Part shown: in pieces, positions 10,870 through 25,851 of the stretch | Numbering within the stretch: position 1 is the stretch's first letter | Layout of the letters: each line of letters opens with the position of its first letter | Assembly: GCF_021021415.1 (NCBI RefSeq) | Contig: NZ_JAINWJ010000001.1 | Location: 248,001 to 312,000 of the forward strand | Source of the DNA: Martelella mediterranea | GTDB taxonomy: Bacteria > Pseudomonadota > Alphaproteobacteria > Rhizobiales > Rhizobiaceae | Direction of reading: 5' to 3' | DNA: 64,000 nucleotides | Position numbers and translations under genes: made by a program | The notes under the pieces: model-generated | The model's input: the letters and a program-made list of their open reading frames with translations, nothing else | What the model was told of the DNA's origin: nothing | Databases searched by the model: none

Positions 10870-12498
10870 TCACCGCGCGCGAGAAGCTCCTGCGCCCTCG
10901 CGATCCCAGGTGTCGGCGGTTACGCCGTCCTTGCGCAGCAGGTGCTTTTGCACCTTGCCGGATGCCGTTTTCGGCAGGTCTTCGAGAACGCGCAGGTAGC
11001 GCGGCACCATGAAGCGCGGCAGCGTCCCGGCAAGCCGCTCGATGACGGAGGCCGGATCGATGCTGTGACCGCTGGCGGGCGATACCACGATCAGCACGTC
11101 ATCCTCGGTGAACTCGGACGGCACCGCAACGGCGGCACATTCGCGGATCTCCGGCAGGTTCAGCACTTCGCTTTCCAGCGCGAAGGACGAGATGTTTTCG
11201 CCGCGCCGGCGGATGACGTCCTTCAGCCGGTCGACAAAGTAGTAGGTGCCATCCTCGTCCCGCCGGAAGCTGTCGCCGGTGTGGAACCAGCCATTGCGCA
11301 TGGCCTCAACGGTTGCCGCAGGATTGTTGTAGTAGCCCGCCATCAGCGCCCAGGGGCGGTGCGATCGGATGATCAGCTCGCCCACCGCGCCGTCACCCAG
11401 CGGCATGTCGTTTTCATCGACGATCCGAAGCTCGCACCAGGGGCGCGGTCTGCCGGCGATGCCCTTGGTTTTGATGCCGGGGCCCGCGTGCAGGGGGCTC
11501 GCGATCTCCGTCATATTGTAGATAGTCCAGGCCTCGATGCCGAACCGTTCCGCAAACAGAGGGCCATCCTCACCGAACGGCGTAATGAAGGCGCGGCGCA
11601 GCGGATGATCGCGATCATCCGGCCTGACCGGTGCCTTGAGCAGGAAGGCAGCCATGACGCCGAGAAGGAGGCAGTAGGTCGAGCCGGTCTCGCGAACGGC
11701 CTGCCAGAACGTATCGGTCTTGAACTCGCGCATCAGGCCGATCGAAAGGCCGCGCGCCAGCATCGCGTTTACGTAAAGCGTTGAACCGCAGTGGAAGATT
11801 GGCCCGCAGATCATGCAGCGGTCATCGGCCTCGACACAGTCGAAGGCGTCCGGCCCCATCGTATAGTGCTGGGCGTAGGTGCTCATCACCCCCTTGGCGT
11901 TGCCGGTCGTGCCTGAGGTATACATGATCGCATGCAGGTCCCAGGGCTCGATCGGTTGCGAAAGGTTCAGCGCTTCCGCGTCCTCGACTTGCGGGTCGAC
12001 CAACGGCTGAATGTCGTAGCCCGCGATCGCGGCAGGCTCGCCCTCGGCCACCAGCACGGTCTTCACCTTTCCAGGCTTCACATCCGCCAATCGCTCGATC
12101 AGCGCGGCCTGCGCGATCAGGACGGGCGCATCGGCATCGCTGAGGATATGTTCGAGCATGTGACCGCGCGCGCCGGTATTGATCGGCACATAGACCGCGC
12201 CGAGATAGTTGATCGCGAACCAGCTGCATAAAAGGTCGGGGCTGTTGCCCATCAGACAAAGCACGTGATCGCCGCGCCTGACGCCGGCTTGCGCCAGCGC
12301 GCTGGCCCTGAGGCGGACCCTGCGATGCAATTCGCCATAGGTCCATGTCGGACCCGGCCAGAACTGGACGAACGGTGCCTCTGGCTGGGTTTGCGCATAC
12401 CCATCAAGGACATAGCGCAGAACGGAGCGCTTTCTGTCCAAAGCCGGATCGGCCGTCGCAGCGGTTTCGGGGGCCTTGCCCGGTGGCTTGAGGGCCAT
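10870..12498 (-). CDS. CaiC-like ATP-dependent acyl-CoA ligase
   Basis: A 542-residue AMP-forming ligase that activates a carboxylate to its CoA thioester. Visible motifs are the phosphate loop YTSGTTGNAKGV (about 190), GWFHTGD (about 410) and the hinge/C-terminal motif DRLKDVIRRRGENIS (about 430). The RRRGENIS hinge and overall form resemble the crotonobetaine/carnitine-CoA ligase group (CaiC) more than long-chain FadD. The ribosome site GAGGAGG precedes the ATG. It is transcribed divergently from the enoyl-CoA hydratase and Liv transporter, across a region holding the island's operator palindrome. It is inferred to catalyse the first committed step after uptake. Confidence 0.85.
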   Translation of the reverse strand: MALKPPGKAPETAATADPALDRKRSVLRYVLDGYAQTQPEAPFVQFWPGPTWTYGELHRRVRLRASALAQAGVRRGDHVLCLMGNSPDLLCSWFAINYLGAVYVPINTGARGHMLEHILSDADAPVLIAQAALIERLADVKPGKVKTVLVAEGEPAAIAGYDIQPLVDPQVEDAEALNLSQPIEPWDLHAIMYTSGTTGNAKGVMSTYAQHYTMGPDAFDCVEADDRCMICGPIFHCGSTLYVNAMLARGLSIGLMREFKTDTFWQAVRETGSTYCLLLGVMAAFLLKAPVRPDDRDHPLRRAFITPFGEDGPLFAERFGIEAWTIYNMTEIASPLHAGPGIKTKGIAGRPRPWCELRIVDENDMPLGDGAVGELIIRSHRPWALMAGYYNNPAATVEAMRNGWFHTGDSFRRDEDGTYYFVDRLKDVIRRRGENISSFALESEVLNLPEIRECAAVAVPSEFTEDDVLIVVSPASGHSIDPASVIERLAGTLPRFMVPRYLRVLEDLPKTASGKVQKHLLRKDGVTADTWDREGAGASRAR

Positions 12499-12589
12499 CT
12501 TGTCCTCCTCAGGAAAAACTCAAATTCAGGACGCGCTTCGGCTTCCGTCCTCTCATATTTCATATTGCATTGTTGTGCCTCATTGTGCA

Positions 12590-12607
12590 ACATACTTAGT
12601 AGTATGT
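12590..12607. promoter_or_regulatory. TetR-type operator palindrome, copy 1
   Basis: ACATACT-TAGT-AGTATGT is an 18-base palindrome with perfect 7-base arms between the divergent ligase and enoyl-CoA hydratase genes. The same element, including upstream GCA, recurs at 21800-21817 beside the tetR gene. Two copies of so specific a sequence at the two divergent promoters of one island point to a shared operator, most likely bound by the TetR protein at 21929-22597. Confidence 0.8.
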
Positions 12608-12645
12608 CGCTTGGCGACGGTGAAATGACGAGGAAAATGGCCGCT

Positions 12646-13383
12646 ATGTCCGGTGTTGAGGTTGAGGTAGAAGGCGCGATTGCAACCGTGCGATTCGATC
12701 GTGGCGGTAAGGCGAATGCGCTGGATCACGCGATGATCGACGCGCTGGAGACGGCGGCAAGAGAGCTGTCGCTCAATCCCGACGTTTCGGTGATCGTCCT
12801 CGCTGGCACGCCGAAAATCTTCGCCGCCGGCGTGGACCTGAAGGACCCGCGGCTGTGGGACCCGCAAGGCCCGGCGGTCGCTCGCCACCTGTCGATGAAT
12901 GCGGGCGTGCGCATGAGCACGGCGTGGCGGCGGCTGCCGCAGATCGTCATCGCCGCGCTTGAGGGGCCGGCCATCGGCGGCGGCGCGATCCTCGCGCTTT
13001 GCGCCGATTTCCGCGTCATGGCCGAGGATGCCTATCTGCGCTTCCCGGAAGTGCGTCTCGGCATGACGCTCGGTTGGGGCGGCCTGCCGCTTCTGACCGA
13101 GCGCGTCGGCGCGGGCCGTGCCAAGAGAATTCTGTGCTGCGACGAAACGATCGGCGCCGACGAGGCGCTGACGCTCGGCCTCGCCGACCGCACGGTTCAT
13201 CAGGGCGCGGCGCTTGACGAGGCGAAAACTTGGGCGAACGCGATCGCGGAAATACCGCCGATGTCGCTGCGCATGACCAAATCCGCCATCGACGCCCATG
13301 CCCGCCGGAATTGGGCCGAAGGCGCCGAGGGCGACCAGTTTCTGCTGGCCAAGCTGCTTGCCGAAGGCGGCGGCGGGGCCTGA
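12646..13383 (+). CDS. Enoyl-CoA hydratase/isomerase (crotonase family)
   Basis: A crotonase-fold protein of about 245 residues that would hydrate a 2-enoyl-CoA. The oxyanion-hole segments are visible (AGTPKIFAAGVDLKD near 55-65, and GPAIGGGAILALCADFRVMAE near 105-125). One catalytic glutamate position is conserved in FPEVRLGM (about 137); the other falls in AIGGGAIL, where the canonical Glu is absent, so it may be a single-Glu hydratase or isomerase. I prefer ATG 12646 (GAGGA at 12630-12634); ATGs at 12604, 12625 and 12637 are in frame, but 12604 lies inside the operator. It heads the plus-strand Liv operon. Confidence 0.85.
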   Translation: MSGVEVEVEGAIATVRFDRGGKANALDHAMIDALETAARELSLNPDVSVIVLAGTPKIFAAGVDLKDPRLWDPQGPAVARHLSMNAGVRMSTAWRRLPQIVIAALEGPAIGGGAILALCADFRVMAEDAYLRFPEVRLGMTLGWGGLPLLTERVGAGRAKRILCCDETIGADEALTLGLADRTVHQGAALDEAKTWANAIAEIPPMSLRMTKSAIDAHARRNWAEGAEGDQFLLAKLLAEGGGGA

Positions 13384-13456
13384 TCACCGGCCGGCGCGTA
13401 AGATACGTCCGGCTTTTTCACGCACCCGAGCGGTGCAAAACGGGAGGAGAATATTT

Positions 13457-14662
13457 ATGACTGTAATAACAAAGGCCATTCTGACGTCGGCCTTCTCCGT
13501 CGCGCTGGCGGCGGGAGCGCAGGCCGAGCCCTATCGGATCGGCGTTCTGACCGACATGTCGGGGATGAATTACGACCTTTCCGGCAAGGGCTCGCAAGTC
13601 GCCGCAGAGATGGCGGTCGAGGACTTCGGCGGCAAGCTTCTGGGGGAAGATGTCGAGGTCATCGTGGGTGACCACCAGAACAAGCCGGATGTCGGCTCGA
13701 CGCTGGCGCGCCGCTGGATCGACGAGCAGAACGTGATCGCGATCGCCGACGTGCCGACGTCCTCGGTGGCACTCGCCGTGCAGGAAATCACCCGCCAGAG
13801 CGATACGGCGCTGCTGATCTCGACCGCGGGCTCCTCGGCGCTCACCGGCGCTTCCTGCTCTCCCTCGACCGCCCAGTGGACCTGGGACACCTATGCGCTG
13901 GCCAACGGAACCGGCCGCGCGATGACGCTGCAGGGCGACAAGACATGGTTCTTCCTGACTGTCGATTACACCTTCGGCCATGCGCTTGAGGCCGATACGG
14001 CTGCGGCCGTCGAGGCCGCCGGCGGCACGGTTGTCGGGCAGGTCATGCATCCGCGCGAAACCTCCGATTTCTCGTCCTACCTGCTGCAGGCCCAGGCCTC
14101 CGGCGCGGATGTGATCGCGCTTGCCAACTCCTCCGGCGACACCATGACCGCGCTGAAACAGGCGGAAGAGTTCGGCATCACGGCCGGCGGACAGGATATC
14201 GCCGGCATGCTGCTGTTCCTGACCGATGTCCATGGCGTCGGCCTTGACATCGCCCAGAACCTGACGCTGACGACCGCCTTCTACTGGGACATGAATGACG
14301 AAACCCGCGCCTGGTCCGAGCGGTTCGGCGAACGCATGGACGGCAAGATGCCGACCATGGTGCATGCCGGCGTCTATTCGTCGGTGATGAACTACCTCAA
14401 GGCCGCCGAGGCATCGGGCCAGGCAAAGAGCGGCTCCGAGGTGATGGAAACCATGCGCGGCATGGATATCGACGACTTCTTCAACCACAATGCCTCCCTG
14501 CGCAAGGATGGCCGCGTCGTCCATGACATGTACCTCGTCCAGGTCAAGACGCCCGCCGAATCCGAGGGTCCGTGGGACTACTACAAGGTCCTGCGCACCA
14601 TCCCGGGCGACGAGGCTTTCCGGCCGCTTGACCAGAGCGATTGCCCGCTCATCGACGGGTAA
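13457..14662 (+). CDS. Liv-type ABC transporter substrate-binding protein
   Basis: A 401-residue periplasmic binding protein (LivK/AmiC fold) with a clear signal peptide (MTVITKAILTSAFSVALAAGAQA, cleaved near residue 23) and the family's GVLTDMSG start. GGAGGAG precedes the ATG. Members bind branched-chain amino acids, amides, aromatic acids or other small carboxylates. The surrounding CoA-pathway genes suggest a carboxylate or betaine, not an amino acid for protein synthesis. It is followed directly by both ATPases and both permeases. Confidence 0.9.
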   Translation: MTVITKAILTSAFSVALAAGAQAEPYRIGVLTDMSGMNYDLSGKGSQVAAEMAVEDFGGKLLGEDVEVIVGDHQNKPDVGSTLARRWIDEQNVIAIADVPTSSVALAVQEITRQSDTALLISTAGSSALTGASCSPSTAQWTWDTYALANGTGRAMTLQGDKTWFFLTVDYTFGHALEADTAAAVEAAGGTVVGQVMHPRETSDFSSYLLQAQASGADVIALANSSGDTMTALKQAEEFGITAGGQDIAGMLLFLTDVHGVGLDIAQNLTLTTAFYWDMNDETRAWSERFGERMDGKMPTMVHAGVYSSVMNYLKAAEASGQAKSGSEVMETMRGMDIDDFFNHNASLRKDGRVVHDMYLVQVKTPAESEGPWDYYKVLRTIPGDEAFRPLDQSDCPLIDG

Positions 14663-14671
14663 GGCGACATC

Positions 14672-15458
14672 ATGACGATGGCTACCGTTTCGGCGCGCCC
14701 CGCGCCGGAGAGCGCCCGTGCCGCACTGTCGGCACGGGGTCTCAGCAAGTCCTTCGGGAACTTTCAGGCCGTGACGGATGTCGACATCGACATCCGTCAC
14801 GGCCGGATCCACGCGCTGATCGGTCCGAACGGCGCCGGCAAGAGCACGGTGTTCAACCTCCTGACCAAGTTCCTGCAGCCGAGCGCGGGGACAATCATGG
14901 TCGGCGAGACGGACATCACCCGCATGGCCCCGGCGCAGGTGGCGCGGCTTGGCGTCGCCCGGTCGTTCCAGATCTCCGCCACGTTCGGCGACATGTCGCT
15001 GGTGGACAATGTCTGTGTGGCGCTGCAAAGGCAAAACGGGCTTGCCGTGCAGTTCTGGCGCTCGCTTGCCAGCCTGTCGCGGCTGAGGCCCCGCGCGATG
15101 GAATTGCTCGGTCGCGTCGGCCTCGCCGACATGGCCGATCACAGGGCGGCGGATCTCTCCTACGGGCGCAAACGCGCTCTGGAGATTGCCACCACGCTGG
15201 CGCTCGACCCGAAAGTGCTGCTTCTTGACGAGCCGCTGGCCGGCATGGGTCAGGAGGATGTCGAGACGATGGCCCGACTCATTTCAGATGTCGCCCGCGA
15301 CTGCGCCGTCCTGATGGTGGAACACAATATCAAGGTGGTTGCCGATATCGGCGACGACATCACCGTGCTGCAGCGTGGCGAAATCCTCACACAGGGAAAC
15401 TATGACGCGGTCAGCGCCGATCCGCGCGTGCGCGAAGCCTATATGGGGACCGAGGACG

Positions 15459-15466
<8 letters not shown>
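14672..15466 (+). CDS. Liv-type ABC transporter ATP-binding protein (LivG type)
   Basis: A 264-residue ATPase with Walker A GPNGAGKST (about 51-59), signature LSYGRKRALEIA (about 160-170; the usual LivG form has QQ where this has RK), Walker B VLLLDEPLAGM and H-loop VEHNI. It begins 9 bases after the binding-protein stop and overlaps the next ATPase by 8 bases. It acts with the products of 15459-18067 in uptake of the island's substrate. Confidence 0.92.
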
Positions 15467-16202
<736 letters not shown>

Positions 16203-16203
16203 C

Positions 16204-17091
16204 ATGACAATGATTTTTGGCGTGCCGCTTGTGGTGCTCACCGGGCAGGTGATGATCGGCCTGATCAACGGCTCGTTCTACGCGCTGCTGTCACTCGGTC
16301 TGGCGGTGATATTCGGGTTGCTGCGCGTGGTAAACTTCGCCCACGGCGCCTTCTACATGCTCGGGGCCTTCGCCGCCTGGATGCTGGGACAGTATCTGGG
16401 CCTCGGCTACTGGCCGTCGCTACTGCTTGCCCCGGTCCTCGTCGGCCTCGTCGGCGCGCTGGTCGAGCGCACCATGCTGCGCCGCCTCTACGATCTCGAT
16501 CACCTTTACGGCCTGCTCTTCACCTTTGGCCTCGCGCTGCTTCTGGAAGGCGCGTTCCAGCATTTCTACGGCGCATCCGGCAAACCGTTTTCGACCCCGG
16601 CCGAAATGCGGGGCGTCATCCGCACCGATTTCGTGACCGTGCCGATCTATCGCGGCTGGGTGGTGGTTGCCTCGCTGCTGATCTGCTTCGGCACATGGGC
16701 GCTGATCGAAAAGACCAAGATCGGCTCCTATCTGCGCGCCGCGACCGAAGATGCCACGCTCGTACAGGCCTTCGGCGTCAACGTGCCGCTGCTGTTGACC
16801 CTGACCTATGCCTTCGGATGCGCGCTTGCGGGCGTTGCAGGCGTCCTCGCCGCTCCGATTTTCCAGGTCAGCCCGACGATGGGCTCCAACATGATCATCA
16901 TCATCTTCGCGGTGGTCGTGGTCGGCGGCATGGGCTCGATCCTCGGCGCGATTGCCACGGGCTATCTGCTGGGCGTGGTCGAGGGTCTGACCAAGGTGTT
17001 CTACCCCGAGGCGGCGAATATCGTGATCTTCGTCATCATGGCGATCGTGCTGCTCTTGCGTCCTGCAGGTCTCTTCGGAAAGGAAAACTGA
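16204..17091 (+). CDS. Liv-type ABC transporter permease (LivH type)
   Basis: A 295-residue membrane permease with about eight hydrophobic helices and the LivH hallmarks GLINGSFYALLSLGLAVIFG at the N-terminus and VVVVGGMGSILGAIATGYLLG near 235-255. ATG 16204 lies immediately after the LivF-type stop. It forms the membrane channel with the LivM-type protein encoded next. Confidence 0.92.
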   Translation: MTMIFGVPLVVLTGQVMIGLINGSFYALLSLGLAVIFGLLRVVNFAHGAFYMLGAFAAWMLGQYLGLGYWPSLLLAPVLVGLVGALVERTMLRRLYDLDHLYGLLFTFGLALLLEGAFQHFYGASGKPFSTPAEMRGVIRTDFVTVPIYRGWVVVASLLICFGTWALIEKTKIGSYLRAATEDATLVQAFGVNVPLLLTLTYAFGCALAGVAGVLAAPIFQVSPTMGSNMIIIIFAVVVVGGMGSILGAIATGYLLGVVEGLTKVFYPEAANIVIFVIMAIVLLLRPAGLFGKEN

Positions 17092-17092
17092 G

Positions 17093-18067
17093 ATGATCGA
17101 AGCCGAAGAATTCGAGACGGTGGCCGAGACCGCCCGCCCGCACCGGCTGCAACAGCTCGTTGTTCTGGCGCTCATTGCCCTGCTGATGCTGCTGCCACTC
17201 TGGATCTATCCGGTATTGCTGATGAAGCTGATGTGCTTCGCGCTGTTCGCGTCGGCCTTCAACCTGCTGCTTGGCTATGGCGGCCTCCTGTCCTTTGGCC
17301 ATGCGGCTTTCTTCGGCGGTTCCGCCTATGTCACGGCGCATGCGCTGAAGGTCTGGGAGGTGAACCCCGAATTTGCCATTCTCTCAGGCGTCGCCGCAGC
17401 ACTTGTGCTGGGCCTGATCATGGGGCTTCTGGCGGTGCGCCGGCAGGGCATCTATTTTGCGATGGTCACGCTCGCGCTGGCGCAGATGTTTTACTTCTTC
17501 TGCCTGCAGGCGCCCTTCACACACGGCGAAGACGGCATTCAGGGTTTTTCGCGCGGGCGCCTTTTCGGGATGATCGATCTCGCCGACGGCAATGTGCTCT
17601 ATTACGTCATCGCCATTGTGTTCGTCGCCAGCATCTTCGCGATCTGGCGGATCGTGCATTCGCCCTATGGCATGGTCCTGCAGGCCATCCGCGAGAATGA
17701 ACAAAGGGCAATCTCTCTCGGCTACTCGGTGCAGCGCTATAAGCTCGGCGCCTTCGTCATGTCGGCGGGCTTTGCCGGTCTGGCCGGCGGGCTCAAGGCG
17801 ATCCTGTTCCAGTTCGCCACATTGACGGATGTGAACTGGCACATGTCCGGCGAGGTGATCCTGATGACGCTTCTGGGCGGGATCGGCAGCATTGCCGGGC
17901 CGATCGTCGGCGCGGGGCTGGTCGTCACCCTGCAGAACTACTTCGCCACCACCGGCTTCCCCGTGACCACGGCGCTCGGCGCAACCTTCATCGTCTGCGT
18001 CCTGCTGTTCCGCCGCGGGATCGTGGGCGAAATCCGCCACCGTTTCGCAGCCAGGAGCAAATCATGA
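17093..18067 (+). CDS. Liv-type ABC transporter permease (LivM type)
   Basis: A 324-residue permease of the LivM group with the conserved NLLLGYGGLLSFGHAAFFGG segment (about 58-77) and the C-terminal TLLGGIGSIAGPIVGAGLV block. It follows LivH by one base, and its stop overlaps the start of the thioesterase gene (ATGA). That overlap ties thioesterase synthesis to the transporter. Confidence 0.92.
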   Translation: MIEAEEFETVAETARPHRLQQLVVLALIALLMLLPLWIYPVLLMKLMCFALFASAFNLLLGYGGLLSFGHAAFFGGSAYVTAHALKVWEVNPEFAILSGVAAALVLGLIMGLLAVRRQGIYFAMVTLALAQMFYFFCLQAPFTHGEDGIQGFSRGRLFGMIDLADGNVLYYVIAIVFVASIFAIWRIVHSPYGMVLQAIRENEQRAISLGYSVQRYKLGAFVMSAGFAGLAGGLKAILFQFATLTDVNWHMSGEVILMTLLGGIGSIAGPIVGAGLVVTLQNYFATTGFPVTTALGATFIVCVLLFRRGIVGEIRHRFAARSKS

Positions 18068-18537
18068 GCAACGCCATATTCCAGAGCGCGTTCCGCGTAC
18101 TTCCGGACTGGGTGGACTATAACGGCCACATGGGCGACTTCGCCTATGGCATCGCCTTTTCCCGTTCCGTCACAGCGCTGATGGAGGAGATCGGCCTTGA
18201 CGAGGCCTATCGCGCCGAAAGCGAAGCCACGCTCTATACGCTGGAGATGCGGATCGGTTATCAGCGCGAATGCCATGAGGGCGACGCCTTTACGGTCGCC
18301 ACGCGGGTTCTGGCGGTCGATGCCAAGCGGATGCACCTCTATCAGGAGATGCTGGACGAGAGCGGAGAGCGGCTGGCCTGGTGCGAGCAGGTGCTGCTTC
18401 ATGTCGCCCGTAAGTCCGGTAAACCGAAGGCCGCCCCTTTTCCTCCGGATGCCGCCGCGCGTCTGAAAGAGATGGAAATGGCGCAGCGGGATGTCCCCTA
18501 CCCGGACTGGCTCAACCGGCGCACTGGTCTGGGTTGA
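18064..18537 (+). CDS. Hotdog acyl-CoA thioesterase, betainyl-CoA thioesterase-like
   Basis: A 157-residue 4HBT/hotdog thioesterase with the catalytic-region motif VDYNGHMGDFAYGIAFSR (about 14-31). The DYNGHM start, YTLEMRIGYQRE and DAKRMHLYQEM segments resemble, from memory, the thioesterase partner of L-carnitine dehydrogenase (CdhB, betainyl-CoA thiolase/thioesterase) in Rhizobiales and pseudomonads. Its start overlaps the permease stop by four bases (ATGA). It would release the shortened acid (glycine betaine, if the carnitine model holds) after thiolytic cleavage. The family call is firm; the specific substrate is inference. Confidence 0.8.
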   Translation: MSNAIFQSAFRVLPDWVDYNGHMGDFAYGIAFSRSVTALMEEIGLDEAYRAESEATLYTLEMRIGYQRECHEGDAFTVATRVLAVDAKRMHLYQEMLDESGERLAWCEQVLLHVARKSGKPKAAPFPPDAAARLKEMEMAQRDVPYPDWLNRRTGLG

Positions 18538-18599
18538 AGCTACCGTTTGCCTGCTCGAACACCGCTCTGCGCGGTTCGGCTGGCTTTCCGTCGTGCCAC

Positions 18600-18632
18600 G
18601 AAAAGAAGACGGCCACCGCGCGCGGTGGCCGT
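18600..18632 (-). terminator. Rho-independent terminator of the thiolase operon
   Basis: The self-complementary block ACGGCCACCGCGCGCGGTGGCCGT (24 bases) spans 18609-18632 and forms a 9-bp stem with a GCGCGC loop. On the minus strand it is followed by CTTCTTTT (18608-18601). It sits between the convergent plus-strand thioesterase and minus-strand thiolase genes and terminates the latter. Confidence 0.75.
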
Positions 18633-18655
18633 CGCATTGCTTTGGAGCGTCCGGT

Positions 18656-19858
18656 TCAAAGAACCTCGAACAGCCCGGCCGCACCCATGCCGCCGCCAAC
18701 ACACATGGTGACCACGACATAGCGCGCGCCGCGGCGCTTGCCCTCGATCAGGGCGTGGCCGACCATGCGCGCGCCCGACATGCCGTAAGGATGACCGATC
18801 GAGATCGCGCCGCCGTTCACGTTCAGCAGTTCGTCCGGAATGCCGAGCCGGTCGCGCGAGGGGATGACCTGCGCGGCAAAGGCCTCGTTGAGCTCCCAAA
18901 GACCGATGTCGTCAACGCTCAGATCATGGGTGGCAAGAAGCTTCGTGACCGCTGATATCGGGCCGATCCCCATCTCTTCGGGCGAAACACCGGTGACGGC
19001 GATGCCTCGATAAAGACCGAGCGGCGCAAGCCCCCGGCGTTCCGCCTCGCGGCTTTCCATCAGGACAGCGGCCGAGGCGCCGTCGGACAATTGCGAGGCG
19101 TTGCCCGCTGTCACAAACGCGCCTTCAGACACCTGCTGGCCATTCTTGAATACCGGGGCAAGGCCTGAGAGACCGTCCAGTGTCGTGGAAGGTCGGTTGC
19201 CCTCGTCGCGCTCAAGGGTCACCTCGCGCATCGTGGTTTCACCGGTTTCGCGGTCGGTGACCTGCATGACGGTGCTGAGCGGCACGATCTCGTCATCGAA
19301 CCTGCCGGCTGCCTGGGCGGCAGCGGTGCGCTGTTGCGACTGCAGGGCATAGGCATCCTGGGCTTCGCGGCTTACGCCATTGCGACGCGCCACGATCTCG
19401 GCGGTTTCCACCATAGACATATAGGTTGCCGGCAGCCGGTCGCTGATCCATGGGTCGTGCCAGTGACGGGTGTTCATCTCGGGCGTCTGAACCAGAGAAA
19501 TCTGCTCGACGCCGCCGCCGATCGTCACCGCCATCCCGTCCGATATGATCTCTTTGGCCGCGATCGCGATCGCCATCAGGCCGGAGGCGCATTGCCGGTC
19601 GACGCTCTGCCCCGGAACGGTCACCGGAAGGCCGGCGCGCAAAAGGCCCGTGCGCGCGATGTTCATATGGGTGGTGCCCTGCTGCAGGGCGGCGCCGACA
19701 ACCACATCCTCGATCTCCGCCGGGTCGACGCCGGCACGGTTGACGGCATGCTCGATGGCATGGCCGATCAGCCGGGGCGCGGTGGTGGCGTTGAACGCGC
19801 CGCGATAGGCCTTTCCGATCGGCGTGCGGGCGGTCGAAACGATAACGGCTTCCCTCAT
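18656..19858 (-). CDS. Acetyl-CoA acyltransferase (thiolase)
   Basis: A 400-residue thiolase. The nucleophilic Cys90 is in [10 protein letters not shown], the GHP histidine in [14 protein letters not shown] (about 350) and the second cysteine in [12 protein letters not shown] (about 386). It would cleave a 3-oxoacyl-CoA with CoA to give acetyl-CoA and a shortened acyl-CoA. ATG 19858 is chosen because it overlaps the upstream thioesterase stop as ATGA and has AAGGAGA upstream; a longer open frame exists but is overlap. It is the last gene of the maoC-SDR-thioesterase-thiolase operon. Confidence 0.93.
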
Positions 19859-20331
19859 GACGGGGTCTCCTTGTTGTCTGTGGCAGGATCGCGCAGCAGA
19901 GCCTCTGCGCAGGCCCGCAATTCGGGCGTGAGCGGGATCGGGCGTCGGGTGGCGCGGTCCACATAAACGTGGACAACGCGCCCGCGAGCGGCGCATGCGC
20001 CGCCCGCCCGGTCAAAAAGGCCAAAGCCCCAGGTCAGGCTGGTGCGCCCGATGGCCTCGACGCGAGCGCCAATGCTGAGCTTCGCGGGGAAGGTAATCTC
20101 CCGGAAGTACTGCGTGCCGTTCTGCACCACCAGCCCGATCGGACCCTCGGCCTCGGCGGAGAGATCGAGCGCGCCGTGCTCGATCAGCGCCATATTCATC
20201 GCCGTATCGAAATAGGACAGGTAGGCCACGTTGTTCACATGGCCATAGATGTCGCAATCGTTCCATTGCGGCGCGGTATCGTAATGCCAGGCATAGGCGC
20301 CGCGCGGAAGCGGCACGAGACGTTCGCTCAT
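19855..20331 (-). CDS. Acyl-CoA thioesterase (YbgC/FcbC-like hotdog protein)
   Basis: A 158-residue hotdog thioesterase with the motif [24 protein letters not shown] (Asp and His of the YbgC/4HBT active site, about 22-45). ATG 20331 begins four bases after the SDR stop and yields the standard N-terminus. It is the second thioesterase of the island, in the other operon. Two different thioesterases suggest two releasing steps, or a housekeeping role in freeing CoA from dead-end intermediates. Confidence 0.87.
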
Positions 20332-20335
20332 CGCC

Positions 20336-21253
20336 TCAATCCTTCTTCGCCAATGCCGCGCGGGCATGCGCGACGATTCGGTCAACGTGATCGAGACCGG
20401 CCATTACCTCGATCTGCCCGTCGAGGCTGGCGATCTCGTCGAAACGCGCGCCGACGGTTTCGGGCGTGAATTCCTGGCCTGCGAAGCAGACGCCCTGGCT
20501 CTCGACCAGCGCAAGGCGCGCGACGGTGCCCGCGCCTGCGAGCAATGCGGTGCGCGAGGGCGCGTCACGGCTCACCAGCCAGACTGCGGCGGGCGACACC
20601 AGGTCGGGCGCGAGCAATTCCAGCATTGCCGGGTCCATCATGTCGCCGGTCATGCGCGTGGCGGCGGTGGGCACGATGGCATTGACGTGAATGCCGTATT
20701 TCGCGCCTTCGAGATGGAGCACGTTCATCAGCCCGAGCACGCCCATCTTGGCGGCGCCGTAGTTGGACTGGCCAAAATTGCCATAGCTGCCGGAGGTCGA
20801 GGAGGTGACGAGGATGCGGCCGTATTTCTGTTCGCGCATCTGCGCCCAGACGGCCTTGGTCGCGATCGTCGTGCCCATCAGGTGCACCTCGACCACGCGC
20901 CGGAAATCCTCGATTTCCATCTTCGCGAAGGACTTGTCGCGCAGGATGCCGGCATTGTTGATCAGCACGTCGATCCGACCGAAGGCCGAAAGCGCCTGCT
21001 CGACCATCTCCGCCATATCGGCCTCGGAGGCGACGTTGCCGGCATTGGCGATGGCGCGCCCACCCGCCGCGGTGATTTCCCGCACCACGGCTTCGCTGGC
21101 CTCGGTGGTGCCGCCGCTGCCGTCGCGCGCGCCGCCGAAATCGTTCACCACGACGGCCGCGCCGTGGCTGGCAAGCATGAGAGCGTGGGAACGGCCCAGA
21201 CCGCCGCCCGCGCCGGTGACGATCGCCACCTGATCCTTGAATGAAACCGTCAT
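20336..21253 (-). CDS. SDR-family 3-hydroxyacyl-CoA dehydrogenase-like protein
   Basis: A 305-residue short-chain dehydrogenase with the NAD motif TGAGGGLG (about 14-21), NNAG (about 96-99) and the catalytic YGAAK (about 165-169). The long N-terminal loop NDFGGARDGSGG and the C-terminal extension (about 225-300) match the D-3-hydroxyacyl-CoA dehydrogenase part of peroxisomal multifunctional enzyme type 2 rather than FabG. Paired with a MaoC hydratase and a thiolase, it would oxidise the 3-hydroxyacyl-CoA to the 3-oxoacyl-CoA. Confidence 0.87.
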   Translation of the reverse strand: MTVSFKDQVAIVTGAGGGLGRSHALMLASHGAAVVVNDFGGARDGSGGTTEASEAVVREITAAGGRAIANAGNVASEADMAEMVEQALSAFGRIDVLINNAGILRDKSFAKMEIEDFRRVVEVHLMGTTIATKAVWAQMREQKYGRILVTSSTSGSYGNFGQSNYGAAKMGVLGLMNVLHLEGAKYGIHVNAIVPTAATRMTGDMMDPAMLELLAPDLVSPAAVWLVSRDAPSRTALLAGAGTVARLALVESQGVCFAGQEFTPETVGARFDEIASLDGQIEVMAGLDHVDRIVAHARAALAKKD

Positions 21254-21316
21254 GTCATCTCCTCCAAAATCGGTTGTCTTGATAATTCCGGTGTTGCTTG
21301 CGCCCGCGTCGCGCGG

Positions 21317-21760
21317 TCAATCCGTCTCTTGGTCCCCGCCCACCGTCAGGACCAGCCAACTGGCTGCCAGGGCCGGGCGCTCCGCCCCTTCGATTTCGAC
21401 GCGCGCGTCGTAGCTGCGCAGAACGCCTCCTGCCTTGGGGGTTTCATTCTCCAGGGTAAAGCTGCCGCGTATGCGCGACCCGACCGGGACGGGGCTGAGA
21501 AAGCGCAGCTTGTCGAAGCCGTAGTTGATTTCGACCGCGCCCGTTTTTGCCGGCGGCAGGGCGCTGCGGGTGAAGGCGGTCAGCATCGAAAGCAGGTAGA
21601 AGCCGTGCACGATCGTGCCGCCATAGCTGGTTTCCGCCTTCGCCCGTTCCGGGTCGACATGGATGAACTGGTGGTCGTCGATCGCGTCGGCGAATCGGTC
21701 GACCATCGGCTGGTCGACGGTTACCCACTCGGAAAGGTGGGGGGCGTGCGCTTCATTCAA
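21317..21760 (-). CDS. MaoC-family enoyl-CoA hydratase
   Basis: A 147-residue hotdog-fold MaoC dehydratase with the hydratase-2 motif DAIDDHQFIHVDPERAK (Asp and His near 22-35) and YGGTIVHGFYLLSML. It would hydrate a 2-enoyl-CoA to the R-3-hydroxyacyl-CoA used by the adjacent SDR. I place the start at TTG 21760, preceded by a perfect AAGGAGGT at seven bases; an in-frame ATG six codons upstream has no ribosome site. It is the first gene of the minus-strand operon, transcribed from the promoter holding operator copy 2. Confidence 0.87.
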   Translation of the reverse strand: MNEAHAPHLSEWVTVDQPMVDRFADAIDDHQFIHVDPERAKAETSYGGTIVHGFYLLSMLTAFTRSALPPAKTGAVEINYGFDKLRFLSPVPVGSRIRGSFTLENETPKAGGVLRSYDARVEIEGAERPALAASWLVLTVGGDQETD

Positions 21761-21799
21761 CTTGGGACCTCCTTGCATATCGGCGACTTTCTTATTGCA

Positions 21800-21817
21800 A
21801 CATACTCCGTAGTATGC
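21800..21817. promoter_or_regulatory. TetR-type operator palindrome, copy 2
   Basis: ACATACT-CCGT-AGTATGC repeats the arms of the site at 12590-12607; 16 of 18 bases are shared, with both copies preceded by GCA. It lies in the 168-base divergent region between maoC and tetR, consistent with autoregulation of tetR and control of the maoC operon. Confidence 0.8.
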
Positions 21818-21928
21818 CAATCCGGAACTGTCCAGACCGCAAACGCGACATCAAGTTTGTTGTGAGCCTTCGATATCGGCTTTATTGCTGGAAGGACGCA
21901 GATTGGGAATTGACCGCAGGGGGAACCG

Positions 21929-22597
21929 GTGGCGAAGAACGACATGCACCGCGAGTGGGCGTTGAAGACCCGAGGTCAGGAAGAATCGGGCGCTCTCGTC
22001 GAGAGCGTCGTCGAAATCCTCGATTGCGCCGCACTCTGCTTCACCGAAATGGGGTTTCAGGGAACCAGCATCGATGATGTTGCCCGTCGCCTCGGCGCGA
22101 CCAAGGGTCGCATCTACCATTACTTCCGCTCCAAGACCGATCTGTTCTTCGAGGTGCACCGCGAAGGCATGAGACGGCTGATGGACGCGGTGAATGAAGC
22201 GATGTCGGCCGGCGGCACCGGTCGCGAAAAGCTCACGCGCATGCTTGAGGCGCACGCTCTGACAATGATGCAGAACATTGCCTATGAAGCGGTCGTCGTG
22301 CAGGGCGTGCACATGCACCGCCTGGGCGCGACCACCCCCGAACAGCGCATCAGCCTCGATGAACTGATGGATATCAGGCACAAATTCGAACTGCTTTTCG
22401 TGGAAGCTTTCCGCCAGGGCCAGACCGACGGCAGCATCCGGCAAGACGCCGATGTTTCCTTGGCCGTGAAGGGCATGCTCGGCGCGGTCAACTGGATGGC
22501 GATCTGGTACCGCCCCCGCTCCGGCGAAAGCCCCGAGCAGCAGCGCGCGATGGCGCGCCGTATCACCGAGCTACAGATTGGCGGAATCGCCGAATGA
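21929..22597 (+). CDS. TetR-family transcriptional regulator
   Basis: A 222-residue TetR repressor. The N-terminal helix-turn-helix is visible (TSIDDVARRLGATKGRIYHYFRSK, about 46-70), and the C-terminal ligand domain has a TetR_C-type motif. Start is GTG 21929 with AGGGGGA upstream. It is divergent from the MaoC operon and next to an Fe-alcohol dehydrogenase. Fatty-acid-type TetR regulators (FadR of Bacillus, PsrA, LiuQ-type) commonly sense acyl-CoA, so the ligand may be a CoA intermediate of this island. The two matching palindromes are its likely binding sites. Confidence 0.9.
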   Translation: MAKNDMHREWALKTRGQEESGALVESVVEILDCAALCFTEMGFQGTSIDDVARRLGATKGRIYHYFRSKTDLFFEVHREGMRRLMDAVNEAMSAGGTGREKLTRMLEAHALTMMQNIAYEAVVVQGVHMHRLGATTPEQRISLDELMDIRHKFELLFVEAFRQGQTDGSIRQDADVSLAVKGMLGAVNWMAIWYRPRSGESPEQQRAMARRITELQIGGIAE

Positions 22598-22640: not shown

Positions 22641-23798
22641 ATGAATAAATTCGCTTTCAACACCGCGAAATCCATCCGCTTCGGCGTCGGCGCCCTGGAG
22701 GAACTGCCGACGCTGGTGAAGGCCCAAATCGGCAACCGCATCATGCTCGTCACCGATCCGGGCATGATGGCGACGGGGATCGTCGACCGGGCGGTGGACC
22801 TTTTGCGCGACGGCGGCATCGCCGTGGAACTGTTCGGCGATGTCCAGGCCGACCCGCCCGAGCATGTGGTGCTTTCAGCCGTCGAAGCGGCGCGATCGGC
22901 TAAAGCGCAAGGGATTGTCGGCCTTGGCGGCGGGTCGTCGCTGGATGTCGCCAAGCTGGTAGCACTTCTGGTTCCGGCCAGGGAAACACTGGCGGATGTC
23001 TACGGCGTGGACAAGGCGCGCGGCCCGCGCCTGCCGCTCATTCTCGTACCGACGACCGCCGGGACCGGCTCGGAAGTCACGCCGATATCGATCGTCACCA
23101 CCGGCGCCAACGAGAAGATGGGCGTGGTCTCGCCGGTGCTTCTTCCCGATATCGCCCTGCTCGACCCCGCCCTGACCTATGGCCTGCCCCCGCACATAAC
23201 CGCGGCAACGGGCATCGACGCCATGGTGCATGCGATCGAGGCCTTCGCCTCGGCGAGCCCGAATAACAACCCGTTGTCGCGCATTCTGGCGACGCAGGCG
23301 CTGACATTGATGGGCCGCTCGCTTCTGAAGGCGGTCGAAGACGGCGCGGACCAGGCGGCGCGCTCCGACATGCTGCTGGGCTCGATGCTGGCCGGACAGG
23401 CCTTCGCCAATTCGCCGGTCGCCGCAGTCCACGCGCTGGCCTATCCGCTCGGCGGGCATTTTCACATCCCGCACGGTCTCTCGAACGCGCTGGTTCTGCC
23501 GCATGTCCTGCGGTTCAATATCGTCACCTCCCCTGCTCCCTATGCCGAGCTCGCGCCTTTCGTGTTTCCGGAACTGTCGGTTCTGGAGGGACAGGAACGG
23601 GCCGCGGCCTTTTGCGAGAAGCTTGCGGAACTGTCGCGCGCCTGCGGCCTGCAACCCAACCTCAGAGCGATGAATATTCCCGAGGACATGCTTCCGAAAC
23701 TGGCCTCAGACGCGATGAACCAGACACGGCTACTGGTCAACAACCCGCGCCCGCTCTCCGAGGAAGATGCGCTTTCGATCTACCGCGCGGCTTTCTGA
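22641..23798 (+). CDS. Iron-containing alcohol dehydrogenase
   Basis: A 385-residue group III alcohol dehydrogenase with the nucleotide motif GLGGGSSLDVAKL (about 97-109) and metal ligands in the D-H-H-H pattern (TGIDAMVHAIEAF near 195, HALAYPLGGHFHIPHGLSNA near 262-281). ATG 22641 follows GAGGA. It oxidises or reduces an alcohol/aldehyde pair, for example a side-chain aldehyde released during catabolism. It lies 43 bases after tetR on the same strand and may be co-transcribed. Substrate not readable. Confidence 0.88.
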   Translation: MNKFAFNTAKSIRFGVGALEELPTLVKAQIGNRIMLVTDPGMMATGIVDRAVDLLRDGGIAVELFGDVQADPPEHVVLSAVEAARSAKAQGIVGLGGGSSLDVAKLVALLVPARETLADVYGVDKARGPRLPLILVPTTAGTGSEVTPISIVTTGANEKMGVVSPVLLPDIALLDPALTYGLPPHITAATGIDAMVHAIEAFASASPNNNPLSRILATQALTLMGRSLLKAVEDGADQAARSDMLLGSMLAGQAFANSPVAAVHALAYPLGGHFHIPHGLSNALVLPHVLRFNIVTSPAPYAELAPFVFPELSVLEGQERAAAFCEKLAELSRACGLQPNLRAMNIPEDMLPKLASDAMNQTRLLVNNPRPLSEEDALSIYRAAF

Positions 23799-23861: not shown

Positions 23862-24425
23862 TCAAAAGGTCGGCGGCGTGCTGGCGGAGACGATGACGCA
23901 GTCTTCCGGCCCCACCTGACGGAAACGATGGGGCTCGCGGCTGTCGAAATAATAGGCGTCGCCGGGGCCCAGTATCTTGCGCTGGTCGCCGACGGTGATC
24001 TCGATTCGGCCGGAAATCACGATCCCGCCCTCCTCGCCCTCATGGCGATACATCACCCGGCCGGTATCCGCGCCCGGCCTGTAGGTCTCCTTCAGGATCA
24101 TCATCGCGCGGCCGATGGAATTGCCCACCTGTTTCAGCGACAGCCGCGCCTTGCCGATCTCGGTCAGTTCCTCGGCGGCATAGAACACCGTCTTCTCGGC
24201 CTCCGGCGTAAAGGCGAAGAATTCAGACAGGCCGATCGGAATGCCCTCGAGGATCCGCTTCAGCGAACCGACCGAGGGATTGAGCCTGCCGGATTCGATC
24301 AAGGAGATGGTCGAACTCGATACATTCGCCTTTTTCGCCAACGCCCGCTGCGACAGCTTGGCCCGCTCGCGCACGGCCCTCAGCGTCCGTCCAAGCTCGA
24401 TATCGTCATGCGAAGCGCTGAGCAT
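23862..24425 (-). CDS. XRE-family regulator with C-terminal cupin domain (PuuR-like)
   Basis: A 187-residue protein: helix-turn-helix (about 12-66, with SQRALAKKANVSSSTISLIESGRLNPS), linker, then a cupin_2 sensor domain (about 110-185, GADTGRVMYRHEGEEGGIVISG). This architecture is that of PuuR and related regulators of polyamine and amino-acid catabolism. It is divergent from gabT-gabD with 145 bases between, where TCTTGC-N5-GCAAGA (24472-24488) could be its operator. Control of GABA/putrescine use is therefore likely. Confidence 0.87.
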   Translation of the reverse strand: MLSASHDDIELGRTLRAVRERAKLSQRALAKKANVSSSTISLIESGRLNPSVGSLKRILEGIPIGLSEFFAFTPEAEKTVFYAAEELTEIGKARLSLKQVGNSIGRAMMILKETYRPGADTGRVMYRHEGEEGGIVISGRIEITVGDQRKILGPGDAYYFDSREPHRFRQVGPEDCVIVSASTPPTF

Positions 24426-24471
24426 GCTTCATATCCTCATCATTCCTGCTTCGATACCAAGTAAATCAATA

Positions 24472-24488
24472 TCTTGCCTTCAGCAAGA
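24472..24488. promoter_or_regulatory. Candidate operator in the gabT/XRE divergent promoter
   Basis: TCTTGC-CTTCA-GCAAGA is a perfect 6-base-arm palindrome between the divergent XRE-cupin and gabT genes. It is the only clear dyad in the region and is a reasonable binding site for the adjacent XRE-cupin regulator. Confidence 0.5.
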
Positions 24489-24570
24489 AACAGACTTTTT
24501 TACCGATCGAAAGCCACATACGCTCCGGCCATGAAGACAGCGGCAAGGACCGCCAAACCAGGAGCAGCTC

Positions 24571-25851
24571 ATGTTGAATTCGGACATCGCCACGCGGCGG
24601 GACGCGGCCATTTCGCGCGGCGTTGGCATGCAGACACAGATTTATGTCGACCGCGCCAAGAACGCCGAGGTCTTCGATGTCGAGGGCCGGCGCTATATCG
24701 ACTTTGCCGCCGGTATAGCCGTGGTCAATACCGGGCACTGCCATCCGAAGGTGATGGCGGCGGTGGAAGATCAGCTCAAGCGCTTCACCCATACCTGCCA
24801 TCAGGTGCTGCCCTATGAGCATTATATCCGGCTCGCCGAGCGGCTGAATGCCGCCGTGCCCGGCGATTTCGACAAGAAGACCGTGTTCGTCACCACCGGC
24901 GCCGAGGCGGTTGAAAACGCCGTAAAGATCGCCCGCGCCGCCACCGGGCGTTCGGCCGTGATCGCCTTCAATGGCGGGTTCCATGGTCGCTCCTTCATGA
25001 CCCTGTCGCTCACCGGCAAGGTCGCGCCCTACAAGACCGGCTTCGGGCCAATGATGCCGGATGTGTTCCACATCCCCTACCCCGCCGAACTGCACGATAC
25101 CTCTGCCGAGGACAGCCTGAAGGCGCTGAAGTCCCTGTTCAAGACCGATCTGGACCCGACCCGCGTCGCCGCCATCATCATCGAGCCCGTGCAGGGCGAA
25201 GGCGGCTTCTACCCAGCCCCTGCCGAACTGATGCGCGCCATCCGCGCGATCTGCGACGAGCATGGCATCGTCATGATCGCCGACGAGGTGCAGACCGGCA
25301 TCGGCCGCACCGGCAAGCTCTTCGCCATGGAAGCCTATGATGTCGCCGCCGACCTGACGACGATCGCCAAGGGCATTGGCGGCGGCCTGCCGCTTGCCGC
25401 CGTCACCGGCCGGGCGTCGATGATGGACGCGGCCGGCCCCGGCGGGCTTGGCGGCACCTATGGCGGCAACCCGCTTTCCATCGCCGCCGCCAATGCCGTG
25501 CTCGACGTGATCGCGGAAGAGGACCTCTGCAACCGCGCCAACCGGCTTGGCTCCTACCTCAAGCAGCGGCTGGAAGCGATCCGCGCGACCACGCCCGAGA
25601 TTGCCGAAATCCGCGGTCCGGGCTTCATGGTCGCTGCCGAGTTCATGACGAAAGACGGCGCACCGAACCCGGAGATGACCAATGCCGTGCGGCTGGAAGC
25701 CCAGAAGCGCGGCCTCATCCTGCTCTCATGCGGGGTATACGGCAATGTCATCCGCTTCCTCGCCCCGCTGACGATCGAGGAAGCGGTTCTGGCGGAAGGC
25801 GTCGACATTCTCGAAGCATCGATTGCCGCCGTGAAGGAGAGGCAGGCATGA
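24571..25851 (+). CDS. gabT: 4-aminobutyrate aminotransferase
   Basis: A 426-residue class III PLP aminotransferase. The cofactor lysine is Lys267 in TTIAKGIGGGLPLAAV, preceded by the DEVQTGIGRTG motif (about 235-245). Length and sequence match bacterial GabT, which converts GABA and 2-oxoglutarate to succinate semialdehyde and glutamate. It overlaps gabD by four bases (ATGA), confirming the pathway. With no dedicated putrescine aminotransferase nearby, it may also act on putrescine or cadaverine. Confidence 0.93.
   Translation: MLNSDIATRRDAAISRGVGMQTQIYVDRAKNAEVFDVEGRRYIDFAAGIAVVNTGHCHPKVMAAVEDQLKRFTHTCHQVLPYEHYIRLAERLNAAVPGDFDKKTVFVTTGAEAVENAVKIARAATGRSAVIAFNGGFHGRSFMTLSLTGKVAPYKTGFGPMMPDVFHIPYPAELHDTSAEDSLKALKSLFKTDLDPTRVAAIIIEPVQGEGGFYPAPAELMRAIRAICDEHGIVMIADEVQTGIGRTGKLFAMEAYDVAADLTTIAKGIGGGLPLAAVTGRASMMDAAGPGGLGGTYGGNPLSIAAANAVLDVIAEEDLCNRANRLGSYLKQRLEAIRATTPEIAEIRGPGFMVAAEFMTKDGAPNPEMTNAVRLEAQKRGLILLSCGVYGNVIRFLAPLTIEEAVLAEGVDILEASIAAVKERQA

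What the first reader, a model, noticed from the sequence alone, without database searches (positions are those of the whole stretch)
12590..21817. One operator palindrome at two distant divergent promoters defines a TetR regulon
ACATACT-N4-AGTATG(T/C), preceded by GCA in both places, occurs at 12590-12607 (ligase/hydratase promoter) and 21800-21817 (maoC/tetR promoter). Seen directly. Together these promoters drive about 11 genes. Inference: the TetR at 21929 represses all of them and itself.
Basis: partly seen in the sequence, partly recalled or inferred. Interest (0 to 1): 0.8.

Follow-up and report, generated by a model that had tools for sequence, protein, structure and literature searches.

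The report
Shared repressor switch for acid-degrading genes
Two near-identical DNA switches 9 kb apart mark a block of about 13 genes that seems to take up and break down an organic acid; they look like docking sites for the repressor encoded in the same block, which appears to read the same DNA word as the mycobacterial regulator DarR but lacks DarR's nucleotide-sensing signature.

Summary
ACATACT-N4-AGTATG occurs exactly twice in the 5.4 Mb genome, at the two divergent promoters named. It contains the published operator core of DarR (ATACT-N4-AGTAT, PMC10636190). The TetR at 21929 is a DarR relative: DarR is its best PDB hit by sequence and fold, with 39% identity and the same DNA-reading Lys/Gly pair. 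In the 17 island copies compared, both promoters keep the operator, and the last two spacer bases are GT in 34 of 34 sites, so it reads ACATACTnnGTAGTATGy. In 394 genomes of the family, TetR homologue and exact operator co-occur (95 both, 12 and 12 alone, 275 neither), also within genera. The proposed regulon is therefore supported: 13 genes, 14 with Fe-ADH. Unlike DarR, it lacks the cAMP/c-di-AMP signature W(X)6Q(X)7L, as do 58 of 62 aligned proteins, itself included, and no c-di-AMP cyclase or class I/III adenylate cyclase was found in the genome. I propose an acyl-CoA-type inducer. Binding, repression and inducer are inferred, not measured.

The parts
12590..12607 (.). Operator O1 (ACATACTTAGTAGTATGT) in the divergent promoter P1, between ligase and enoyl-CoA hydratase
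   Evidence: kept in 17 of 17 island copies compared
21800..21817 (.). Operator O2 (ACATACTCCGTAGTATGC) in the divergent promoter P2, between maoC and tetR
   Evidence: kept in 17 of 17 island copies compared
21929..22597 (+). TetR-family repressor, DarR-like (222 aa, GTG start)
   Evidence: PF00440 + PF17932; best PDB hit DarR E 2e-39; first 17 Foldseek rows all DarR; DNA-reading residues conserved
10870..12498 (-). Acyl-CoA ligase (AMP-binding), leftward transcript of P1
12625..13383 (+). Enoyl-CoA hydratase/isomerase, first gene of the rightward P1 operon (ATG 12625, 12637 or 12646)
13457..14662 (+). ABC substrate-binding protein (Peripla_BP_6)
14672..15466 (+). LivG-type ABC ATPase
   Evidence: ORF; not profiled itself; the colinear gene in Martelella AD-3 is annotated ABC transporter ATP-binding protein
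15459..16202 (+). LivF-type ABC ATPase
   Evidence: by colinearity
16204..17091 (+). LivH-type permease
   Evidence: by colinearity
17093..18067 (+). LivM-type permease
   Evidence: by colinearity
18064..18537 (+). 4HBT-type thioesterase (TEa); best NCBIfam hit is the C-terminal part of carnitine 3-dehydrogenase PRK07531, below cut-off
18608..18633 (.). Hairpin of 11 pairs, terminator-like on both strands, between the two convergent operons
   Evidence: the number of terminator-like sites in the region, 11, is at shuffle level, mean 9.4; this is the longest stem listed
18656..19858 (-). Acetyl-CoA C-acyltransferase (thiolase), last gene of the leftward P2 operon
19855..20331 (-). 4HBT-type thioesterase (TEb)
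20336..21253 (-). SDR of the (3R)-hydroxyacyl-CoA dehydrogenase (MFE-2) type
   Evidence: best PDB hits 2et6, 1zbq, 1gz6
21317..21760 (-). MaoC-type hydratase, TTG start behind AAGGAGGT
22641..23798 (+). Fe-containing alcohol dehydrogenase, 43 bp behind tetR; accessory (not found beside tetR in L129-L131)

Best explanation
The TetR at 21929 is a DarR-like repressor that binds ACATACTnnGTAGTATGy at both divergent promoters. From O2 it represses its own gene (and probably the Fe-ADH behind it) and the maoC-SDR-thioesterase-thiolase operon. From O1, 9.2 kb away, it represses the acyl-CoA ligase and the hydratase-ABC transporter-thioesterase operon. The island takes up an organic acid, activates it to a CoA thioester and shortens it by (3R)-type beta-oxidation. 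When the substrate is present, a CoA thioester of it, or the acid itself, most likely binds the C-terminal pocket, moves the DNA-binding domains apart and releases both promoters together. Shown: operators, gene order, conservation, co-occurrence, homology, residue conservation. Inferred: binding, repression, the chemical class of the inducer. The substrate is unknown.
For: Two exact sites in 5.4 Mb. Sites at both promoters in 17 of 17 island copies compared, with mean operator information 1.95 bits (P1) and 1.79 bits (P2) against 0.62 and 0.40 in flanks. Operator within 400 bp upstream of tetR in 18 of 18 loci with 54% identity or more (the window included) and in 27 of 43 with lower identity. 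Co-occurrence in 394 genomes: 95 both, 12 TetR only, 12 site only, 275 neither; in 18 genera holding both kinds, 28 of 36 TetR+ against 7 of 73 TetR- genomes have a site, stratified exact p 1.2e-8. DarR operators contain ATACT(N)4AGTAT and are read by Lys44/Gly45 (PMC10636190); the window has K59/G60, and the pair is kept in all 60 aligned proteins (window included, DarR not counted) that have residues there. The nearest paralogue in the genome (35%) has Ala at the Gly45 position. Beyond DarR, the closest folds include PfmR, KstR2, FadR and AibR, of which FadR and AibR have acyl-CoA complexes in their PDB titles. Pocket residues M66, H94, R135, L168 and N172 of DarR are kept in the window.
Against: No binding or expression data exist for this protein. 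16 of 43 loci with homologues below 54% identity show no such operator within 400 bp, though at least three of these have a site farther off (L096, L097) or a core match (L161). 12 genomes have a TetR homologue but no exact site, and 12 the reverse. Of 12 sites away from tetR in other layouts, 3 stand at genes with no plain link to beta-oxidation. No clear -35/-10 boxes were recognised, so the mode of repression is inferred. The inducer class is by analogy only, and DarR pocket residues N97, H105, H109 and Y138 differ (T, E, V, F).
Confidence: 0.85

Rival explanations
1. The TetR is a true DarR-type sensor: cAMP or c-di-AMP acts as co-repressor, so the island is coupled to second-messenger level.
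For: Closest characterised relative is DarR, for which cAMP strengthens DNA binding (PMC10636190). Of the nine nucleotide-site positions checked, D159, L162, W177, Y178 and R179 are kept in the window.
Against: The other four differ (R165 to K, I181 to R, Q184 to E, L192 to M). The published signature W(X)6Q(X)7L is present in only 4 of 62 aligned proteins. No DAC domain, class III or class I cyclase was found in the genome; other cyclase classes were not searched.
Confidence: 0.08
2. The palindromes are bound by another regulator of the genome, and tetR is only one of its targets.
For: Other TetR-family-like proteins exist in the genome (14 matches at E<=0.001, this TetR included).
Against: Site and this TetR homologue co-occur. 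The nearest paralogue has a different recognition helix (TKAGLYHYF); the other 12 were not compared. The operator core is that of DarR, this protein's closest solved relative.
Confidence: 0.05
3. TetR controls only its own divergent promoter; O1 is a relic of a duplicated promoter.
For: Autoregulation of the neighbouring divergent promoter is a common TetR arrangement (general knowledge, recalled).
Against: O1 is the better kept of the two sites (information 1.95 against 1.79 bits) in the 17 copies compared while its flanks diverge. In genomes with a different gene order a second site is often kept, in 9 of 12 examined at acyl-CoA metabolism genes.
Confidence: 0.05

Closest known systems
DarR of Mycolicibacterium smegmatis, M. 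baixiangningiae and Rhodococcus sp. USK13 (PMC10636190, parts 1-5 of 9 read)
   Same: Operator core ATACT-N4-AGTAT; recognition residues Thr43/Lys44/Gly45/Tyr48/Lys54; site at its own promoter; link to fatty acid metabolism (PMC5575661, passages seen); TetR fold, 39% identity over 193 residues.
   Different: Lacks W(X)6Q(X)7L and Arg165; no DAC and no class I/III cyclase found in the host; sites stand at a transport-plus-beta-oxidation island; operator has a fixed GT in the spacer (nnGT) and outer arms ACA/TGT instead of the AGA/TCT of the published 20-mer.
PfmR (3vpr), FadR (3whc, 5gpc), AibR (5k7h), KstR2 (4w97)
   Same: TetR-family regulators of acyl or steroid catabolism by their PDB titles or by recall; next folds after DarR.
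   Different: 20-31% identity in the Foldseek rows; NCBIfam FadR model 58.4 bits against a cut-off of 200.
DarR-like TetR on plasmid pR1CP1 of Rhodococcus opacus (L161)
   Same: Divergent from SDR, thiolase, a gene named glucose 1-dehydrogenase, MaoC and acyl-CoA ligase, with ATACT-N4-AGTAT in between; 73% identical to DarR.
   Different: 40% identical to the window TetR; no Liv-type transporter among the 16 listed features of the 20.6 kb shown (that gene table is incomplete), an MFS transporter instead; keeps the nucleotide signature.

Membership tests
TetR family (TFR) | TetR_N helix-turn-helix plus helical C-terminal domain | tested here: met
   PF00440 54.4 bits (cut-off 24), PF17932 57 bits (cut-off 26.4); model with ten helices, mean pLDDT 72.8
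DarR group | Closest solved relatives by sequence and fold are DarR proteins | tested here: met
DarR group | Operator ATACT(N)4AGTAT, also at its own promoter | tested here: met
   definition from PMC10636190
DarR group | Base-reading Lys44-Gly45 in the recognition helix | tested here: met
   K59-G60 in the window; kept in all 60 aligned proteins (window included) with residues there
DarR group | cAMP/c-di-AMP site W(X)6Q(X)7L plus Arg165 | tested here: not met
   W193, E200, M208, K181; signature in 4 of 62 aligned proteins, DarR included
DarR group | Host makes c-di-AMP (DAC domain) | tested here: not met
   0 hits for PF02457 in the own genome, reported 100% complete; control rang in 11 of 14 genomes
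DarR group | Host makes cAMP | tested here: inconclusive
   0 hits for PF00211 and PF01295 in the own genome; other cyclase classes not searched
DarR group | Two contacting dimers per operator (dimer of dimers) | tested here: inconclusive
   A GTA/TAC triplet at the place expected for an offset half-site in 58 of 77 sites against 6.2 expected, 12 of 25 distinct sites; contact residues L120 and K121 are Thr here
DarR group | nM binding and repression | not testable with these tools
   needs an assay
Bacillus FadR equivalog (NF053878) | Score at or above curated cut-off | tested here: not met
   58.4 bits against 200
AcuR equivalog (NF051457) | Score at or above curated cut-off | tested here: not met
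   32.5 bits against 247

The most novel reading that the evidence does not exclude
DarR is the actinobacterial branch of a wide, horizontally moving family of beta-oxidation repressors whose DNA word (ATACT-N4-AGTAT) and Lys-Gly reader have stayed fixed across two phyla. The family's ordinary signal is a catabolic CoA thioester, and cyclic-nucleotide sensing is an addition confined to a few members. The alphaproteobacterial island branch has also turned the palindrome into a directional operator (nnGT spacer) that seats a second dimer on one side.
Probability: 0.4. Interest if true: 0.62.

Novelty: new variant of a known kind. Interest (0 to 1): 0.5.

Why it matters
[quoted passage not shown] The same operator core and DNA-reading residues occur in many Alphaproteobacteria, often beside acyl-CoA catabolism genes, in proteins that mostly lack the nucleotide signature. 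This makes it directly testable whether acyl-CoA control, not second-messenger sensing, is the family's general role, and it gives a specific DNA word with which to predict regulons in uncharacterised genomes.

Tried and rejected
Chance origin of the palindrome: rejected. Genome-wide regulon: rejected; the 2-mismatch sites are at control level. Another regulator as owner of the site: disfavoured. Cyclic-nucleotide control in this organism: disfavoured. Looping between O1 and O2 as a required mechanism: not pursued; in many listed genomes the two sites lie on different contigs or far apart. Clear sigma-70 promoters next to the operators: none found; the 2 promoter-like hits are at shuffle level (mean 1.9) and not at the operators. 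Substrate identity: left open. The ligase resembles PRK06155 and crotonobetaine/carnitine-CoA ligase models and TEa the C-terminal part of carnitine 3-dehydrogenase (all below cut-off), so a carnitine-like or an alpha,beta-unsaturated acid is a guess only; PDB searches of ligase, TEa and substrate-binding protein did not settle it. Literature: searches for the operator letters with TetR and for TetR regulons of fatty acid genes in Alphaproteobacteria listed, among the 20, 15 and 7 rows shown of 26, 119 and 7 papers, no title on this operator; (DarR with c-di-AMP, acyl-CoA, regulon) listed one review. None of those papers was opened. The library holds only CC-licensed PMC papers, and Zhang et al. 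2013 (the first DarR paper) is not held. A scan of viral contigs for ACATACTNNGTAGTATGY gave 25 stretches, not followed.
Full report
Observation. ACATACTTAGTAGTATGT (12590-12607) is perfect; ACATACTCCGTAGTATGC (21800-21817) differs in its last base. Both are preceded by GCA. With up to 3 mismatches the window holds 3 matches against 0.16 expected from shuffles. In the whole genome (5.41 Mb, 106 contigs) the exact word ACATACTNNNNAGTATG occurs only at these two places; the 5 further places with 2 mismatches are at the level of the reversed control, which gave 9 forward and 10 reverse hits.

Genes. O1 lies in the 126-bp gap between the acyl-CoA ligase (leftward) and the enoyl-CoA hydratase (rightward). 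The hydratase is followed by a substrate-binding protein, two ABC ATPases, two permeases and a thioesterase; with ATG starts the gaps are 73, 9, -8, 1, 1 and -4 bp (from, where the two starts of LivF and LivH were set 3 bp early). O2 lies between maoC (leftward, followed by SDR, thioesterase and thiolase) and tetR (rightward, followed after 43 bp by an Fe-alcohol dehydrogenase). A hairpin of 11 pairs at 18608-18633, terminator-like on both strands, separates the two convergent operons (the total number of terminator-like sites there is at shuffle level). Ten of the 14 proteins were profiled; the four Liv-type ones are named by colinearity with annotated genes. The SDR is of the (3R)-hydroxyacyl-CoA dehydrogenase type, which with MaoC and thiolase makes an (R)-type beta-oxidation set. 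No acyl-CoA dehydrogenase is among these genes.

The regulator. The 222-aa TetR has PF00440 and PF17932 domains. Its best PDB matches by sequence are DarR proteins (E 2e-39), and a model with mean pLDDT 72.8 has DarR chains as its first 17 Foldseek rows, then PfmR and KstR2 and, further down, FadR and AibR. Identity to DarR is 39% over 193 residues. I read parts 1-5 of 9 of the DarR structure paper (PMC10636190). It states that DarR operators contain ATACT(N)4AGTAT, that Lys44 and Gly45 read the bases, that two contacting dimers bind one operator, and that cAMP and c-di-AMP bind a site with the signature W(X)6Q(X)7L and strengthen DNA binding. The window's operators contain that same core. A review (PMC5575661, passages seen) says that DarR binds promoters of genes of fatty acid metabolism.

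Conservation of the island. One scan of named genomes gave 5 loci, and a plasmid search gave 16 records, of which 9 were opened. All 17 carry a site at P1 and at P2 with at most 2 mismatches. These copies are not independent; several are near relatives of each other. Mean information in the 14 operator columns is 1.95 bits (P1) and 1.79 bits (P2) against 0.62 and 0.40 in the 45-base flanks. The last two spacer bases are GT in 34 of 34 sites, read towards the hydratase or tetR; a leading tgca is present in 17 of 17 P1 but only 7 of 17 P2 sites.

A wider family. Among 297 genomes of the order, 18 have a homologue at E<=1e-30; among 394 of the family, 107 do. The exact word RCATACYNNNNRGTATGY is in 107 of 394 genomes drawn the same way; the reversed control pattern is in 22 by my count of that table. 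The overlap is 95, with 12 and 12 on one side only and 275 in neither (Fisher p 2e-63, not corrected for kinship). Within the 18 genera that hold genomes with and without the TetR, 28 of 36 TetR+ and 7 of 73 TetR- genomes have a site; 11 genera lean the expected way, 1 the other way, 6 are equal; stratified exact p 1.2e-8 (the tables were transcribed by hand). 74 of the 107 TetR+ genomes have exactly two sites. Of 61 loci with a homologue, the operator lies within 400 bp upstream in 18 of 18 with at least 54% identity (one of them the window) and in 27 of 43 below that; 16 of 43 show none there even with 3 mismatches (recounted). Three of the 16 have something near: L096 an exact site upstream of a ligase gene that precedes tetR, L097 a 2-mismatch site farther off, and the Rhodococcus opacus plasmid pR1CP1 AATACTACTGAGTATC between tetR and a divergent SDR-thiolase set. 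The rest are unexplained; six of the wider regions were not opened at all.

The second site elsewhere. I looked at 12 sites away from tetR in genomes with another layout. In 7 (L114, L116, L118, L120, L122, L125, L126) the site lies close to genes of FadJ, acyl-CoA ligase and/or thiolase type. In L118 a PcaD-like hydrolase and a FadJ-like protein were profiled, in L125 a thiolase and a ligase, in L122 a ligase; the others rest on size, order and BLAST hits to window proteins. In 2 (L088, L090) it stands at an acyl-CoA dehydrogenase gene. The other 3 do not fit plainly: L091 is next to a molybdopterin oxidoreductase gene, L092 between an SDR and an FAD-dependent oxidoreductase gene, and L103 at the end of an ORF without a Pfam match at E<=1e-15.

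Same DNA code, different sensor. 61 proteins (window included) were aligned to DarR; the Lys44-Gly45 pair is kept in all 60 that have residues there. The nearest paralogue in the same genome (35% identity) has Lys-Ala. The nucleotide site is only partly kept: the window has Lys, Arg, Glu and Met at the places of Arg165, Ile181, Gln184 and Leu192, while Asp159, Leu162, Trp177, Tyr178 and Arg179 are the same. The signature is present in 4 of 62 aligned proteins: DarR itself, L161, L163 and L166; L163 is one of the 17 island copies, so loss is not complete even there. No DAC domain, class III or class I cyclase was found in the own genome; other cyclase classes were not searched. DarR pocket residues Met66, His94, Val108, Arg135, Leu168 and Asn172 are kept; Asn97, His105, His109 and Tyr138 are Thr, Glu, Val and Phe.

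Second half-site. In the DarR crystal a second dimer sits on an offset, imperfect half-site (TXC/GXA). Of 77 sites (75 typed from the capped list plus the window's two), 58 have TXC/GXA in the overlap triplet against 30.3 (sd 4.1) expected at 63% GC, and all 58 are GTA or TAC, against 6.2 (sd 2.4) expected; of 25 distinct sites 12 have it. The GC of the other genomes was not checked, and kinship inflates the counts. This fits an offset second dimer but does not show it, and DarR's contact residues L120 and K121 are Thr here.

Conclusion. Most likely this is a two-operator regulon of a DarR-like repressor, relieved by a CoA thioester or an acid of the island's own pathway (binding to both sites 0.85; acyl-type inducer about 0.6, by analogy with FadR and AibR). 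It is not filed as a cyclic-nucleotide-responsive DarR because that feature was tested and not met. The listings showed no paper on this operator outside DarR; that library lacks most subscription journals, and only part of the matching papers was listed.

Noticed in passing
21827-21838: A second conserved block (actgtccagacc) about 10 bp behind O2 on the tetR side, recognisable in most of the 17 P2 promoters by eye; neither part of the palindrome nor an obvious promoter box. Unexplained.
   Followed up: no
12565-12569: TTGCA about 20-25 bp left of O1 is present in the 17 aligned P1 promoters by eye, within a base or so; possibly a promoter box or an extra contact.
   Followed up: no
L132:9983-10707: In 'Marinicella sp. 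W31' the tetR reading frame is in two overlapping pieces while both operators are kept; sequencing error or a broken regulator. Its other island proteins are up to 95% identical to the window's.
   Followed up: no
L129:10972-11634: Sagittula marina carries a second DarR-like TetR (45% identity) directly behind the first, next to another Liv-type transporter.
   Followed up: no
   Followed up: no
L159, L160, L163: The island sits on plasmids, two of them typed conjugative (Sulfitobacter OXR-159, Ochrobactrum MT180101), with insertion sequences within a few kb, which suggests movement as a unit.
   Followed up: partly
G000 and the other genomes of its genus: Only 2 of 8 sampled genomes of the window's genus have the TetR, and the same 2 have the operator. 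A Martelella plasmid copy is 86% identical in TetR, so the genus may be Martelella (inference).
   Followed up: partly
23862-27311: An XRE-cupin-like regulator next to gabT-like and aldehyde dehydrogenase-like ORFs, seemingly a separate amine or GABA-type gene group right of the island (ORFs, named by eye, not profiled).
   Followed up: no
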